A DNA stretch of 29,018 nucleotides, from IMG/VR virus record IMGVR_UViG_3300013120_000161, positions 1 to 29,018 of that record; one strand, written 5' to 3'. A model generated the notes under the pieces. The model ran no database searches. It was not told the DNA's origin and worked only from the letters and a program-made list of their open reading frames with translations. This DNA is from a virus. The translations under genes were made by a program, and so were the position numbers. Below, piece by piece: positions 3,835-25,380 of the stretch. Position 1 is the stretch's first letter, and each line of letters begins with the position of its first letter.

Positions 3835-5160
3835 CTAAGTAACATGTAGCTTATTCTCCTGCTTCTCCCTCTCTACGTTAACCGGCTTGAAGTCACACAG
3901 GATATATCTCTCCGCTGCCATCAGGTGATACGTAGCCTCATTGTGTATCTTGCGGGTCAGGTTATCATCATCGTCCACTTCCCAACTGAAGCTCATCTTC
4001 TCATCGAGGTAATCGTGCAGGTCATTAAATATATATAACCGATTCTGCTTGTGCAAGGCATACACCCTGTCAATTTGTGCCTCAACGCCTCTTATCCCCG
4101 GCTCCGCTATGTGCCAACCTGCTATCGAATACCCGTCCCTTATCTCCTGTTCTTGGTGACTACCCCCGGCCTTCCTTCTGATTACCTCACCTTTACTCAA
4201 CTCTTTGAACTCAGCCGCATGTTCCGATAAGCTACCACCGCCCTTGTAAGTCCTGTACAGGTAAATAAATCCCGTTGCCGGCTCTACCGCATACCAAACC
4301 GCAGCCGTATTGTTTAATCCGAAATCATGTCCAGTGTACCGGGGCCACTCACCGGGGATGGCAAACCTGGGGATAACACACGTATCAGCGTCTAAGCAAT
4401 CGTAAACCAAGCCTTCTAAACTGTCTAGAATCTCCCCTGCTAACTCCTGTCTGCCTAACTTAGTCCCTTCATACTTGCTCATGATATAAGACAGGAACTC
4501 CGGTGCCAGGTTCGCTTTGTTGTCCAGGGTATGCCCTCTTGTGGTAAGTGTCCTTCTGTCCTGTACCAGGTCTTTGATAATCTTTATCGGCCTGGGCGTG
4601 GTAGTCACTACTGCCTGCGGATTCTCACCGATCCTTAACCCCATCATCAGGTTGTCCCAGGTCTGTTGAGGGTACTTGAACTTGGCTAACTCATCTATCC
4701 AAGACTTTTTGTGCTGCGGTCCCCTCAACTGGTCCGGTTCGTCCCCGGAATAGATAATAGCCTGCGCTCCGTTCGGGAATGTCAATCTTCTCTTGGATGG
4801 CTCATACTCGGGCTTAAACCATGGCGGGCATACTTTGATAATCGAACTGTCTCCTACTTCAACCATTGTGTCTCTTACATCAGCCTTTGTTTGTCCAATC
4901 AACGCAATCGGTGATTCACCTTCTCCTGCCCACTTCCTGACCATTTCCGAGCCTACTCTTGTCTTCCCAAAGCCACGGCCAGATAATAGCAACCAGACAT
5001 ACCATCTACTCCTGGGCGGCAACTGGTTAGGTCGGGCCCAGAATTCCCAGTCATACAACAAACTCTCTGCTTCTTGGTCGCTAAGGTTCTGTATCGCTTC
5101 CGCTCTCAGATTCTCGGGAAGCGAGGCTATTGAGCATGCTAATGAGTTTTCCTTTGGCAT
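3835..5160 (-). CDS. terL: Terminase large subunit
   Basis: TerL is the ATPase and nuclease that drives DNA into the procapsid and cuts the concatemer. The 441 residues show a Walker A variant GRGFGKT (61-67), a Walker B strand ending SWIDEL with Asp156-Glu157, the coupling motif VVTTTPRP (184-191) and a nuclease-type aspartate in YTGHDFG (Asp279), with a C-terminal HNEATYHLMAAERY helix. The LLYDWEFWARPNQLPP lead-in matches the COG5323/Terminase_6 type. The ATG at 5160 lies 80 bases inside terS and has no clear ribosome site, so expression may depend on coupling to terS; the N-terminal residues match the family, which supports this start. Confidence 0.93.
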   Translation of the reverse strand: MPKENSLACSIASLPENLRAEAIQNLSDQEAESLLYDWEFWARPNQLPPRSRWYVWLLLSGRGFGKTRVGSEMVRKWAGEGESPIALIGQTKADVRDTMVEVGDSSIIKVCPPWFKPEYEPSKRRLTFPNGAQAIIYSGDEPDQLRGPQHKKSWIDELAKFKYPQQTWDNLMMGLRIGENPQAVVTTTPRPIKIIKDLVQDRRTLTTRGHTLDNKANLAPEFLSYIMSKYEGTKLGRQELAGEILDSLEGLVYDCLDADTCVIPRFAIPGEWPRYTGHDFGLNNTAAVWYAVEPATGFIYLYRTYKGGGSLSEHAAEFKELSKGEVIRRKAGGSHQEQEIRDGYSIAGWHIAEPGIRGVEAQIDRVYALHKQNRLYIFNDLHDYLDEKMSFSWEVDDDDNLTRKIHNEATYHLMAAERYILCDFKPVNVEREKQENKLHVT

Positions 5161-5545
5161 CGACTTGTAACTCTACCGGCCCGCCATTGGCACCTGTAAC
5201 CTGTACCTGAGCCGGCGAGTGTGCTCCCTCCATCTTGTTTAATTCGTTAATGGCTTTAATTGCTATCTGGTCTGCCGAGGCCGGCCCTTCCTTATCCGCA
5301 ATCGAGGATAACCGCTCTTTTCTCCTGTTAACGTCCATTACTATTCTGTCAACCGTCTTCTTCTCGACCTTGCCTCGTAACTGCTCTATCCGGGCTTTTA
5401 TCTCTGGTCTCTTCATCATAATGCAGGACTGGGTTGAGGCAGACGATTCCTTGTAACCGGCCACAATAGCCGATTGAGTCTGATCCCCAGTCTTCAAGTA
5501 CTCTATGCAAAACCTTTCCTGCCTCTGATTTAATGCTTCCTGCAT
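5081..5545 (-). CDS. terS: Terminase small subunit
   Basis: TerS recognises the packaging site on phage DNA and hands it to TerL. The 154-residue protein begins LNQRQERFCIEYLKTGDQTQ followed by SAIVAGYK, the hallmark N-terminal helix-turn-helix of the Terminase_2 family. A helical middle region would form the oligomer core, and the tail is disordered. The ATG at 5545 has GAGGAG about 10 bases upstream. The 3' end overlaps terL by 80 bases. A candidate binding site with phased repeats lies about 500 bases upstream (5966-6268). Confidence 0.9.
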   Translation of the reverse strand: MQEALNQRQERFCIEYLKTGDQTQSAIVAGYKESSASTQSCIMMKRPEIKARIEQLRGKVEKKTVDRIVMDVNRRKERLSSIADKEGPASADQIAIKAINELNKMEGAHSPAQVQVTGANGGPVELQVDAKGKLISMLNSLASRESESGSDTEP

Positions 5546-6268: not shown

Positions 6269-6478
6269 TTAGTTATTATGTGGCTTACCCGAATTACATC
6301 TACGGCATAAAGTCTGTAAATTAGAATCCTCGCTTGAACCGCCGTTGTAAACAGAAATTATATGGTCGACGGTTAGATCATCATCAATGCCACATTGGAG
6401 GCACTGGTAATTATCCCTAGAGAATATTCTTTGCCGAACTTCTGGCTTCTTAATGCAATAATCTGCTTGTTGGGTCAT
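6269..6478 (-). CDS. HNH endonuclease
   Basis: The 69-residue protein has all parts of a compact HNH nuclease: CLQC (Cys26, Cys29), the DHI core (Asp38-His39), GGSSEDSNLQTLC with Asn53, and a closing CRRCN (Cys58, Cys61, Asn62), so one structural zinc and one metal-dependent cutting site are expected. In several cos phages a small HNH protein next to the terminase genes is needed for specific DNA cutting by TerL, and that is the likely role here. The ATG has a weak site (AGGG). A 22-codon frame with a better site (AGAAGGA, ATG at 6518, stop 6450) overlaps its start and might couple translation. Confidence 0.85.
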   Translation of the reverse strand: MTQQADYCIKKPEVRQRIFSRDNYQCLQCGIDDDLTVDHIISVYNGGSSEDSNLQTLCRRCNSGKPHNN

Positions 6479-6642
6479 ACCCTATTCGCTGCTTTTCCAG
6501 AGATTCTATACTATCCATCTTAATCCTTCTGCTACGGCTGGTAATCATCATGGCCGGGTCCGGGATGTTCGCCCGGACCCGTAAGCCAAAGGAGAGAGAA
6601 TGATGGCCGGACCACCGCCAGGGTCAAGCGGTGTCCTCCAAT
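6479..6642 (-). promoter_or_regulatory. Structured leader ahead of the HNH-terminase operon
   Basis: Between the terminator at 6643 and the HNH start the transcript can fold strongly: a perfect 9-bp hairpin GGGTCCGGG/CCCGGACCC at 6556-6580, and a second hairpin with arms of the ACCGC/GCGGT type at about 6606-6633. CATCAT and ATGATG on either side could close a larger stem around the first. On the plus strand a ribosome-site-like AAAGGAGAG precedes a 14-codon frame at 6601; I do not count it as a gene. The density of hairpins suggests RNA-level control, for example antitermination, but the function is inferred. Confidence 0.4.
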
Positions 6643-6665
6643 AAAAAAGGGAGCTTGTAGCTCCC
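6643..6665 (-). terminator. Rho-independent terminator
   Basis: Reading on the minus strand, GGGAGCT, loop ACA, AGCTCCC (6665-6649) is followed by six T (6648-6643). This is a strong intrinsic terminator. It would end both the early operon arriving from 13 kb and any short transcript begun at the promoter 6707-6735. Confidence 0.8.
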
Positions 6666-6698
6666 CGTCATTGGGTGGGAGACACACGTTCCCCCACT
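6643..6698 (-). ncRNA. Predicted short two-hairpin RNA (about 55 nt)
   Basis: The minus-strand promoter at 6707-6735 should start transcription near 6700-6698, and the terminator ends it at about 6643. The RNA would fold into a first hairpin (6675-6697, arms GTGGGGGA and TCTCCCAC, one G-U pair, 7-base loop) and the terminator hairpin. It has no open frame. The layout is like the short RNA made between lambda pR' and tR', whose terminator is bypassed when the late antiterminator acts; no Q-like protein is recognised here. Confidence 0.45.
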
Positions 6699-6706
6699 AA
6701 TTAAAG

Positions 6707-6735
6707 ACTTTATCATAAAGTTTCAGGCTTGTCAA
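6707..6735 (-). promoter_or_regulatory. Sigma70-type promoter, candidate late promoter
   Basis: On the minus strand TTGACA (6735-6730) is followed after 17 bases by TAAAGT (6712-6707), which is a perfect -35 and a 4/6 -10. It lies in the gap between the end of the early operon (6826) and the HNH-terminase operon, pointing at the latter. Confidence 0.65.
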
Positions 6736-6825: not shown

Positions 6826-7242
6826 TTACTGCCTCACCCTCTGCCTGGTCTTCTTCTTCCAGGCAATGTAATCGGTACTCTTCCTTTTCCACCCGGTAAT
6901 ATACCTTAGTGCCGAGTCGATACACTCCACCGTGTACCAGTAATCAAGCTGGTTAAACTCGGCTATGTCCACTATGTCTTCCTTCAGGTAGTAGTGGTCG
7001 TAGACCATCTTGCCGTCACGCCGGCACTTTATTAACCTGACCACTACCTCAGCACCTATCTGTATCGCCTTCTCAAAGTAGGCACCGGCCGGCCGATGCT
7101 TTGACATCCCCACGTAACCGGTTTCCTTATGCTCCGGTGGCCAGAAGCCTATCCTTATATCCCCGAGGTTGTCCAGGATAAACAATATTTCATCTTTCTG
7201 GAAGGTAATCTCGCCCGGGGAGTACCAGGACTTTTTAATCAT
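6826..7242 (-). CDS. Unknown early-operon protein, basic C terminus
   Basis: The 138-residue product overlaps the upstream gene by 8 bases (coupled start inside CAGCATGATTAA). It looks like a soluble alpha/beta protein with a strand-rich middle (GAEVVVRLIKCRRDGKM) and a strongly basic tail (WKRKSTDYIAWKKKTRQRVR), which suggests contact with nucleic acid. Last gene of the early operon, before the terminator at 6643. Family not recognised; a late-gene regulator would fit the position but there is no motif for it. Confidence 0.65.
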   Translation of the reverse strand: MIKKSWYSPGEITFQKDEILFILDNLGDIRIGFWPPEHKETGYVGMSKHRPAGAYFEKAIQIGAEVVVRLIKCRRDGKMVYDHYYLKEDIVDIAEFNQLDYWYTVECIDSALRYITGWKRKSTDYIAWKKKTRQRVRQ

Positions 7243-7429
7243 GCTGTGTCCTGGGGCGTTCTTTCATAATGCGCTCTAATTCCAAATCGTCCTCGATTTC
7301 AGTTATGTCCTGGTGTAATAGGTCTATCTTCTGACCGTATGTATCCCACTGATACCGGACTAATTTGATTAGTGATTCCGGGTCAATACAGGAATAGAGG
7401 GGCCAGGACGTTTTCTGATTAGTTACCAC
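7235..7429 (-). CDS. Unknown small acidic/helical protein
   Basis: A 64-residue frame starts at GTG 7429 (AAGG about 9 bases upstream). Residues 20-55 look like a single long helix with charged heptads (DLLHQDITEIEDDLELERIM). It is coupled to the next gene by overlap and follows the short Ser-rich gene at 7519-7650. No family recognised. Confidence 0.55.
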   Translation of the reverse strand: MVTNQKTSWPLYSCIDPESLIKLVRYQWDTYGQKIDLLHQDITEIEDDLELERIMKERPRTQHD

Positions 7430-12164: not shown

Positions 12165-12503
12165 TTACCTTAATAGCATCACCATCTGGTGAGGGTTTAG
12201 TATTCCCTTTGATGCTAATTTGAAATCCCTGCGCCTGTAAGCATCATTGACCAGACGGGACCGTAATCCATCCATATATTCCTGGGCTTCCTCTATGCTG
12301 TCGGCAATGTAGTAGCCGTAGGGAGGGTTCACAGAAGATGCTACCGGTATCCCCTTGGCAATAAGCTCTCTTATTACCTGCCTGATGAGTCGGTCATCTC
12401 GAAAACCCAGACGCTTGGCTAACTCTCTGCCGGTGATGGCGTTTACCTTACCGTGCTTGAGTAGGCAGCGCACTTCTAATTTAAGATGGCCGTTTGAGTT
12501 CAT
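12165..12503 (-). CDS. Winged-helix DNA-binding protein
   Basis: The 112 residues show a winged helix-turn-helix: a first helix (LEVRCLLKHGK), ITGRELAKRLGFRDDRLIRQ as the recognition unit, then ELIAKGIPVASSV and PPYGYYI as the wing, and a C-terminal helix (EYMDGLRSRLVNDAYRRRDF). This type is frequent in early phage operons near the repressor genes. It may act as regulator or replication accessory. It follows directly on the stop of the 72-residue gene (TAGATG). Confidence 0.7.
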   Translation of the reverse strand: MNSNGHLKLEVRCLLKHGKVNAITGRELAKRLGFRDDRLIRQVIRELIAKGIPVASSVNPPYGYYIADSIEEAQEYMDGLRSRLVNDAYRRRDFKLASKGILNPHQMVMLLR

Positions 12504-13059: not shown

Positions 13060-13088
13060 AAAGTAGCACATAAGTTACACTTTGTCAA
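13060..13088 (-). promoter_or_regulatory. Early leftward promoter
   Basis: On the minus strand TTGACA (13088-13083), a 17-base spacer and TACTTT (13065-13060, a 3/6 match). The predicted transcription start falls on the A of the ATG at 13053. An operator-like inverted repeat occupies the spacer. Confidence 0.65.
13062..13079. promoter_or_regulatory. Operator O2 overlapping the early promoter
   Basis: AGTAGCACATAAGTTACA is an imperfect version of the perfect operator O1 (13146-13163): same 18-bp length, same 7-4-7 spacing, with three mismatches to the consensus TGTAGCA-N4-TGCTACA. It covers the spacer and part of the -10, so bound repressor would block the early operon. Confidence 0.65.
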
Positions 13089-14124: not shown

Positions 14125-14179
14125 AGCCACGGTAGGTAGCCGTATTACTACGAAGAGTAGCATTTTTAAGGCTTTTAGC

Positions 14180-14220
14180 TGGCAGTCAAAAGGTAGAGGG
14201 TTCGAATCCCTCCAGCTCCA
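14180..14220 (+). other. attP core: 3' end of a tRNA gene
   Basis: The bases GAGGGTTCGAATCCCTC (14196-14212) form a perfect tRNA T-arm, followed by CAGCTCC and A, which fit the 3' acceptor strand and discriminator base; no CCA is encoded. The matching 5' acceptor GGAGCTG and the rest of a cloverleaf are missing upstream, so this is not a working tRNA. Such tRNA 3'-end copies next to an integrase gene are the standard attachment core, which restores the host tRNA on integration. Phage genes on both sides indicate attP rather than attL or attR. Confidence 0.75.
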
Positions 14221-14260
14221 GTTTAGCCTCGAAAATGCCGCGCGGTAAGGTAAAAGTAGG

Positions 14261-23529: not shown

Positions 23530-24513
23530 CTAGGTTTCGGGGTTCACACCGGTCAGGACGGATAGGCTAAACTTGTCGTAACAAGCAAAGCCCGTGTACC
23601 ACTTAAAGCGGTGGCGGATGGCATCTTTGTTCTGGACAGTGCCTATGTTTTCGTGTTTGAATCCGCCGGCCTGTATGATACAAAGCCCATCCTCAGCCAA
23701 GCGCATGGCGAATATCGGGCTATTGTCCGTAGTATTTGCCCTGGTAACATGCTTGACCGCTGTGGATATGGTTGTAATGCTTGAGGAACTGTCGGGGAAG
23801 TTGTCCTCGATGTAGTCGTTGATGAGTAATGTCTGCTCACCAAAGCGGGTTACGAAGTAGCCCAACTGGTCTTTGTCGTGCTCCAAGTTGTTACCCGCAG
23901 CCCGAGCAAGCGCATTGAGTTTCCTTCGCGACCACCGACTCATCATCAGGTTGGTAGCACCACTCTTACAGGCGTCAACCAGTTCCTCTATCTTGGCAAT
24001 GGTGAGAGCGGCGGAGGTAGCATGGTTGGCTACAACCTGGGAGTTGTTAGGAGCATCAAGGTCAGTGGTGGATTCGCTCTCTATCTCAGCGCAGAGTAGA
24101 AGTAAGCCCTTCGGCTGGTTTGTGCTAGATGAGGTTGTGGTCTGGCCGTAAATCAACTGGTCATACCACTCGTTCATCATGCCCCGGGTCTTCCTCTTAA
24201 TCTCGATGAGTTCTGGGTTCTGGGTTGCATTGGTGGCAATAGAGAACTTGTCTACATCGGCATCCCCGATAAGTTCGTAGATGGCAGCCGAGCGCTGCGT
24301 GTAAGTCCCAGTGTCTTCTGGGATAACATCACCGGGTCGAGTCCAGGCCCCGCCGGGATATGCTGTCTCTACGTTGTACTTGACACCGTTGCCTTTGACT
24401 TCCCTGACCGGCATCGTCTGTAACAGACCATTGGTCTGTTTGAAAAGCCAGTCATAGACCCCCTTCATAATGAGGTCTGTATCGAGTTTTTGATAATCTG
24501 TTAATGTCTGCAT
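23530..24513 (-). CDS. Major capsid protein, HK97 fold
   Basis: The 327-residue product lies directly after the scaffold gene, as expected. The N-terminal arm (DYQKLDTDLIMKGVYDWLFK), spine-like helices, ATSAALTIAKIEELVDACKS, and the C-terminal DAIRHRFKWYTGFACYDKFS are of the type seen in HK97-fold capsid proteins. It self-assembles into the icosahedral shell around the scaffold. AGGAGG lies about 11 bases before the ATG. The assignment is by pattern and synteny; no protease gene is seen and no long delta domain is present, so a separate scaffold is used. Confidence 0.8.
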   Translation of the reverse strand: MQTLTDYQKLDTDLIMKGVYDWLFKQTNGLLQTMPVREVKGNGVKYNVETAYPGGAWTRPGDVIPEDTGTYTQRSAAIYELIGDADVDKFSIATNATQNPELIEIKRKTRGMMNEWYDQLIYGQTTTSSSTNQPKGLLLLCAEIESESTTDLDAPNNSQVVANHATSAALTIAKIEELVDACKSGATNLMMSRWSRRKLNALARAAGNNLEHDKDQLGYFVTRFGEQTLLINDYIEDNFPDSSSSITTISTAVKHVTRANTTDNSPIFAMRLAEDGLCIIQAGGFKHENIGTVQNKDAIRHRFKWYTGFACYDKFSLSVLTGVNPET

Positions 24514-25339: not shown

Positions 25340-25367
25340 AAAAAAGGAGTGCCTTTTAAGCACCCCT
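25340..25367 (-). terminator. Intrinsic terminator inside the structural operon
   Basis: On the minus strand AGGGGTGC and GCACTCCT pair (one G-U) around a 7-base loop and are followed by six T. It lies between the giant virion gene and the scaffold gene. The 5' arm can instead pair in a short CCCC-GAA-GGGG hairpin just upstream, so the terminator might be conditional. Confidence 0.7.
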
Positions 25368-25380
25368 TCGGGGATGACTG

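What the first reader, a model, noticed from the sequence alone, without database searches (positions are those of the whole stretch)
6479..6735. pR'-tR'-like late control: promoter, 55-nt two-hairpin RNA, terminator, structured leader
A TTGACA-17-TAAAGT promoter fires into a terminator with U6 only about 55 nt later, between the early and packaging operons. The RNA's first hairpin is strong, and the leader beyond the terminator is also highly folded. This matches the logic of lambda late control or put-type RNA antitermination, but no known antiterminator gene is present, so the mechanism may be new. The unknown basic 138-residue protein (6826-7242), last of the early operon, is a candidate factor.
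Basis: partly seen in the sequence, partly recalled or inferred. Interest (0 to 1): 0.7.

Follow-up and report, generated by a model that had tools for sequence, protein, structure and literature searches.

The report
Q-like late switch in uncultured phage
Between its early and late genes this phage has a strong promoter that runs straight into a stop signal about 50 bases later, the same layout coliphage 21 uses to keep late genes off until an antiterminator protein arrives, and the gene just upstream encodes an unrecognised protein that may be that antiterminator.

Summary
On the minus strand a TTGACA-17-TAAAGT promoter (6735-6707) fires into an intrinsic terminator (6648-6666 plus U6) about 52 nt from the predicted start, between the last early gene and the packaging genes. 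The same unit, without DNA similarity, lies upstream of terminase in 9 loci of the phage group, against 0 on the opposite strand, 0 downstream on the same strand and 0.15 in shuffles. The layout closely matches phage 21 pR'-tR'. The minus strand has only one other strong promoter, the early one, and the late operon holds an internal terminator before the major head gene, as expected if antitermination is processive. The best candidate factor is the 138-aa protein: all four known family members have such a unit downstream, and its models resemble sigma region 4 and, weakly (Z 4.5-4.9, no sequence support), Q21. A put-type or attenuator RNA is not supported: the second hairpin is the terminator, the 5' hairpin is not conserved, and alternative pairing is at chance. 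The leader's folding is ordinary. Verdict: new variant of a known kind, Q-type late control with an unrecognised putative antiterminator.

The parts
6707..6735 (-). late promoter (pR'-like): TTGACA, 17-nt spacer, extended -10 TGaTAAAGT; predicted start about 6700
6707..6721 (-). 15-bp palindrome ACTTTATGATAAAGT overlapping spacer and -10; possible factor-binding site (speculative, P about 0.09 by chance)
6641..6700 (-). predicted short terminated RNA, about 55-60 nt
   Evidence: z -3.4
6675..6697 (-). 5' hairpin (8 bp), not conserved across relatives
6643..6666 (-). intrinsic terminator (tR'-like): GGGGAGCU-ACA-AGCUCCC + U6; would also end the early operon
6479..6640 (-). late leader, with a 10-bp hairpin at 6555-6581; overall folding ordinary
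6826..7242 (-). 138-aa last early gene; candidate antiterminator with sigma-region-4-like HTH, Q21-like outline
13060..13088 (-). early promoter TTGACA-17-TACTTT opposite the CI-like repressor; the only other strong minus-strand promoter
6269..6478 (-). small HNH endonuclease, first gene after the leader
5081..5545 (-). terminase small subunit
3835..5160 (-). terminase large subunit
25343..25369 (-). internal intrinsic terminator in the late operon, upstream of the major head gene
23530..24513 (-). major head protein, downstream of the internal terminator
   Evidence: PHROG 212 E 3.6e-45

Best explanation
This is a Q-type late-gene switch. A strong sigma70 promoter at the early/late junction is expected to make only a short RNA of about 55 nt, because an intrinsic terminator sits about 50 nt from the start; the same terminator would also end the early operon. 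When the early operon is expressed, its last gene product (138 aa, sigma-region-4-like HTH) accumulates, loads on RNA polymerase at this promoter and makes it resistant to terminators. Polymerase then passes the proximal terminator and a second one before the major head gene, and transcribes the whole late operon of about 19 kb. Shown here: the promoter-terminator unit, its conserved position in related phages, the operon layout, and the presence of the internal terminator. Inferred: promoter activity, termination, antitermination, and the identity of the factor.
For: (1) The pair is found upstream of terminase in 9 loci (window, L006, L007, L011, L018, L115, L134, L143, L154) in 234 kb, against 0 on the opposite strand, 0 in 530 kb downstream on the same strand and a shuffled mean of 0.15; in most, the terminator stem ends 31-55 nt from the predicted start. 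(2) Phage 21's annotated region has the same order and spacing: Q stop, -35 six nt later, Q-binding element between -35 and -10, terminator ending at +50. AlpA-controlled terminators begin at +54 and +26 (PMC7969949). (3) -10-like elements, as used for the sigma-dependent pause in Q loading, occur in the initial transcribed region of 6 of 11 loci against 1.1 expected (P about 1.5e-4; 4 loci against 0.8, P 0.005, if hexamers overlapping the -10 are left out). (4) Only two strong minus-strand promoters exist in 29 kb, and the late operon contains a further terminator before the major head gene with no strong promoter after it. (5) All four known 138-aa family members (window, L006, L009, L011) have a promoter-terminator unit downstream; in three it is the very next feature. 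(6) Models of two family members match sigma region 4 (Z up to 6.4 and 7.0). Q21 is the match of longest coverage in the second: 6p18_Q, Z 4.9, rmsd 4.3, 91 residues, model 9-142 against Q21 9-150. (7) No other early gene matches a known antiterminator.
Against: No expression data exist. The window itself lacks a clear -10-like pause element and no factor-binding element is established; the palindrome over the -10 could be chance. Several loci with the unit (L007, L134, L138, L143, L154, L018, L115) show no 138-aa homologue, some because the contig is short, but L018, L115 and L154 have long upstream sequence. In L009 three other genes separate the homologue from the promoter, and its promoter passes only relaxed criteria. 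The Q21 match is weak: Z below 5, sigma region 4 scores higher, and profile comparison is not significant (hhalign E 0.029 for one comparison, probability 1.7%). L006 and L011 homologues lack part of the HTH segment.
Confidence: 0.66

Rival explanations
1. Same pR'-tR' switch, but the antiterminator is another early protein (for example the 64-aa ORF 7235-7429 or a protein such as 12165-12503) or a host factor, and the 138-aa protein does something else.
For: The unit also occurs in loci without a 138-aa homologue. L009 has three genes between its homologue and the promoter. Q families are known to be unrelated to each other (PMC7171158).
Against: The 138-aa gene is directly upstream in three of four phages that have it, as Q is in phage 21, and its predicted fold suits a promoter/RNAP-binding factor.
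Confidence: 0.17
2. The 138-aa protein is a classical activator or repressor of the late promoter, and the hairpin merely terminates the early operon; late transcription then depends on leaky read-through.
For: Sigma-region-4-like HTH; palindrome overlapping the -10; the terminator would also stop early transcription.
Against: The promoter has a perfect -35 and an extended -10, so it should need no activator. In nine loci the terminator lies just downstream, not upstream, of the promoter.
Confidence: 0.1
3. RNA-only control: a put-like nascent RNA or an attenuator/riboswitch in the first 55 nt decides read-through.
For: Two strong hairpins in 60 nt with z -3.4; CUCCC of hairpin 1 could pair with GGGAG of the terminator.
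Against: The 5' hairpin is missing or weak in about half of the relatives and alternative pairing is at chance in all. No Rfam match. put has two stem-loops and lets polymerase pass later terminators without a protein (PMC9378689); here the second stem is itself the terminator.
Confidence: 0.04
4. The short RNA is the product: a small regulatory RNA of the lysogen, with the late genes served by other promoters.
For: A discrete terminated RNA of about 55 nt is predicted.
Against: The RNA sequence is not conserved while its position ahead of the late operon is. No other strong minus-strand promoter lies ahead of the late genes.
Confidence: 0.03

Closest known systems
Phage 21 Q21 / pR'-tR' late control (PF06530)
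   Same: Gene order (candidate/Q gene, promoter, terminator, late genes); strong sigma70 -35 with 17-nt spacer; terminator ending near +50; mainly helical protein with sigma-region-4-like HTH and collinear weak structural match
   Different: No PF06530 or profile match; no identified Q-binding element; no clear pause element in the window; late operon begins with HNH and packaging genes, not tRNA and lysis genes; 90-nt gap between gene and promoter
Lambda Q and Q82 late control (PF03589, PF06323)
   Same: Constitutive-looking late promoter followed by a terminator after the last early gene (own knowledge)
   Different: No sequence match; lambda tR' is much farther from the start (about 194 nt, own knowledge)
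AlpA of Pseudomonas aeruginosa
   Same: Antitermination at terminators beginning +26 and +54 from the start; -10-like pause element as in some relatives here
   Different: Host programmed-death regulator with a predicted winged helix; no sequence match to the 138-aa family in the libraries searched
GafZ of the Caulobacter gene transfer agent
   Same: Phage-derived late cluster under promoter-loaded antitermination
   Different: Terminator lies after the first gene; needs GafY and IHF
HK022 put RNA
   Same: Two stem-loops just downstream of a phage promoter
   Different: put works without a protein and neither stem is a terminator; here the second hairpin is the terminator and the first is not conserved

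Membership tests
Q-type late control (pR'-tR' architecture) | Strong promoter after the last early gene and before the late operon | tested here: met
Q-type late control (pR'-tR' architecture) | Intrinsic terminator between that promoter and the first late gene | tested here: met
Q-type late control (pR'-tR' architecture) | Sigma-dependent pause element (-10-like) in the initial transcribed region | tested here: not met
   Absent by the criterion used in the window, present in 6 of 11 loci above chance
Q-type late control (pR'-tR' architecture) | Factor-binding element between -35 and -10 | tested here: inconclusive
   Palindrome 6707-6721 is unique in the window but P about 0.09 by chance
Q-type late control (pR'-tR' architecture) | Phage protein that makes RNAP terminator-resistant from this promoter | not testable with these tools
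   Needs a reporter or in vitro assay
Q21 protein family (PF06530) | Sequence match to the family model | tested here: not met
   hhalign not significant
Q21 protein family (PF06530) | Q21 fold | tested here: inconclusive
   Z 4.5-4.9 over 84-91 residues; sigma region 4 rows score higher
Q21 protein family (PF06530) | Gene position immediately upstream of the late promoter | tested here: met
   Window, L006, L011; not adjacent in L009
HK022 put RNA | Two conserved stem-loops acting without a terminator of their own | tested here: not met
   Second stem is a U6 terminator; first not conserved
Attenuator or riboswitch leader | Mutually exclusive terminator/antiterminator pairing | tested here: not met
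   Pairing energy at shuffle level in all loci; no Rfam match

The most novel reading that the evidence does not exclude
The 138-aa proteins are a new family of processive late antiterminators in phages of uncultured bacteria, either extremely divergent Q21 relatives or an independent invention built on a sigma-region-4-like fold, and phages in this terminase lineage combine the same promoter-terminator unit with different antiterminator families.
Probability: 0.5. Interest if true: 0.62.

Novelty: new variant of a known kind. Interest (0 to 1): 0.52.

Why it matters
The best-studied phage late antiterminators come mostly from proteobacteria. This gives a directly testable candidate family and a simple search rule (strong promoter plus terminator within about 55 nt, upstream of terminase) that can find others. 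If true, Q-type control is a recurring solution carried by unrelated or extremely diverged proteins in phages far from the lambdoid group.

Tried and rejected
put-like RNA, attenuator and Rfam RNA families: rejected. The leader as a special structured element: folding ordinary. Homologues of the 138-aa protein in sequenced phages: none. PDB sequence search: none. More homologues in viral contigs from single members or the alignment: only the same loci. Pfam SH3_1 hit to the 138-aa protein (E 0.004, below cut-off): judged spurious because the model is all-helical. Shared promoter element TTGACAAACATT(n)TTGAGT in L006 and L138: other hits in viral contigs lie in unrelated sequence, so too few for a motif. 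Palindrome at the -10: not significant. L133, close in terminase, has opposite-strand genes upstream and no early/late junction. A tRNA-like stretch in the L011 leader was not called by ARAGORN. DNA covariation: impossible, as relatives do not align; the only near-identical contig, L002, diverges inside the HNH gene and starts downstream of the promoter.

Full report
WHAT IS THERE. On the minus strand, directly after the early operon, lie a stop codon at 6826, a 90-nt AT-rich gap, a promoter TTGACA-17-TAAAGT with TG before the -10 (6735-6707), a predicted start at about 6700, a hairpin at 6675-6697, a terminator hairpin at 6648-6666 followed by U6, and a 162-nt leader to a small HNH gene. Terminase small and large subunits and further late genes follow. 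The 60-nt RNA folds better than every one of 200 shuffles (z -3.4). The leader beyond the terminator does not stand out (z -1.4). In the whole 29 kb the minus strand has only two strong promoters by my matrix: the early promoter at 13088, opposite the CI-like repressor, and this one.

IS IT MORE THAN CHANCE? I collected terminase relatives from IMG/VR and GTDB and scanned for a sigma70 promoter (matrix score 10 or more) followed within 115 nt by a terminator. In the 2.5 kb upstream of the large terminase gene, on its strand, 9 of 113 loci with more than 300 bases of upstream sequence have such a pair; many of the others are too short upstream to reach an early/late junction. The opposite strand has none, 530 kb downstream has none on the same strand and one on the other, and dinucleotide shuffles give 0.15 loci on average. 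The matrix and cut-offs were set by me after seeing the first few relatives, so the controls, not the absolute score, carry the argument. The pairs sit between the last early gene and the terminase cluster. In most of them the terminator stem ends 31-55 nt from the predicted start. The DNA itself is not conserved, so the architecture, not the sequence, is what selection seems to keep. Two further loci, L009 and L138, show the unit under relaxed criteria.

COMPARISON WITH PHAGE 21. The annotated phage 21 genome shows the Q gene stop, a -35 six nt later, the Q-binding element between -35 and -10, the start, a sigma-dependent pause element, and a terminator ending at +50, then the late region. 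Spacing here is almost the same. Proximal terminators are also the rule for AlpA targets (+54 and +26; PMC7969949). Six of 11 loci carry a -10-like hexamer just after the -10, as needed for the pause that loads Q or AlpA (PMC9371919), against 1.1 expected. The window itself does not meet this criterion.

PROCESSIVITY. The record appears circularly permuted: one reading frame of 1248 codons runs across its ends. The late operon would then run from 6700 through position 1 and 29018 down to about 16075. A strong intrinsic terminator (25369-25343) lies inside it, ahead of the major head gene (PHROG 212), with no strong promoter after it. A polymerase made terminator-resistant at the late promoter would solve this; relief of a single leader terminator would not. 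The terminator could also be only partly efficient.

THE CANDIDATE FACTOR. The 138-aa protein has three distinct relatives (L006, L009, L011; 27-33% identity), none in Pfam, PHROGs, NCBIfam, PDB sequences or sequenced phages. All four have a promoter-terminator unit downstream; in three it is the next feature, and in L006 the -35 overlaps the stop codon. AlphaFold models of two members (mean pLDDT 74 and 63.5) are helical with a sigma-region-4-like HTH (best Z 6.4 and 7.0). Q21 is listed for both: Z 4.5 over 88 residues (6p1b_A), and Z 4.9 over 91 residues, collinear 9-142 against 9-150 (6p18_Q). These Z values are in the range the tool warns about, the HTH alone could explain them, and a profile comparison with a Q21-family alignment is not significant. 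Q proteins are in any case mutually dissimilar, sharing mainly the HTH (PMC7171158). I therefore say that it may work like Q21, and do not file it as a member of PF06530. Counter-points: L018 and L115 have the unit and long upstream sequence but no such protein, and two family members lack part of the HTH segment. Different phages may pair the same unit with different factors.

ALTERNATIVES. A put-like RNA is unlikely: the second hairpin is a terminator and the first is weak or absent in about half of the relatives. Attenuation is unlikely: pairing between the 5' segment and the terminator arm is no better than in shuffled sequence in any locus. Simple activation is less likely because the promoter is near consensus and in every case points into a terminator.

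VERDICT. The finding is confirmed and the lambda-like reading is well supported in architecture. The mechanism is most likely the known Q type, with an unrecognised protein.

Noticed in passing
L115:9065-9552 (alphaproteobacterial MAG contig JANSWW010000006): A 141-aa protein of PHROG 6836 (unknown function) ends just upstream of an equivalent promoter-terminator pair before terminase; it may be another unrecognised late antiterminator.
   Followed up: partly
window 1 and 29018: A 1248-codon open frame runs across the two record ends, so the 29-kb record is probably a circularly permuted, near-complete genome, although it has no end repeats.
   Followed up: partly
window 14160-14225: The 3' half of a tRNA-like sequence (GGTAGAGGGTTCGAATCCCTCCAGCTCCA) lies just before the integrase gene, a likely attachment site.
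   Followed up: no
L002:1-205 against window 6269-6480: A 99.7% identical contig diverges abruptly inside the HNH gene and carries unrelated coding sequence upstream, which suggests recombination or a chimeric assembly at the late leader.
   Followed up: partly
L106-L112, L114, L118, L127-L129: The nearest terminase relatives in isolate genomes and MAGs are in methanogenic archaea (mostly Methanolobus), although this phage group uses bacterial sigma70-type promoters.
   Followed up: no
L006:4217-4245 and L138:168-198: The two late promoters share the element TTGACAAACATT(n)TTGAGT between -35 and -10; its TTGAG resembles the phage 21 Q-binding element ATTGAGCA, possibly by chance.
   Followed up: partly
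L138:190-340: The late leader holds three strong hairpins before the terminase cluster, the last a U6 terminator, a longer array than in the window.
   Followed up: no
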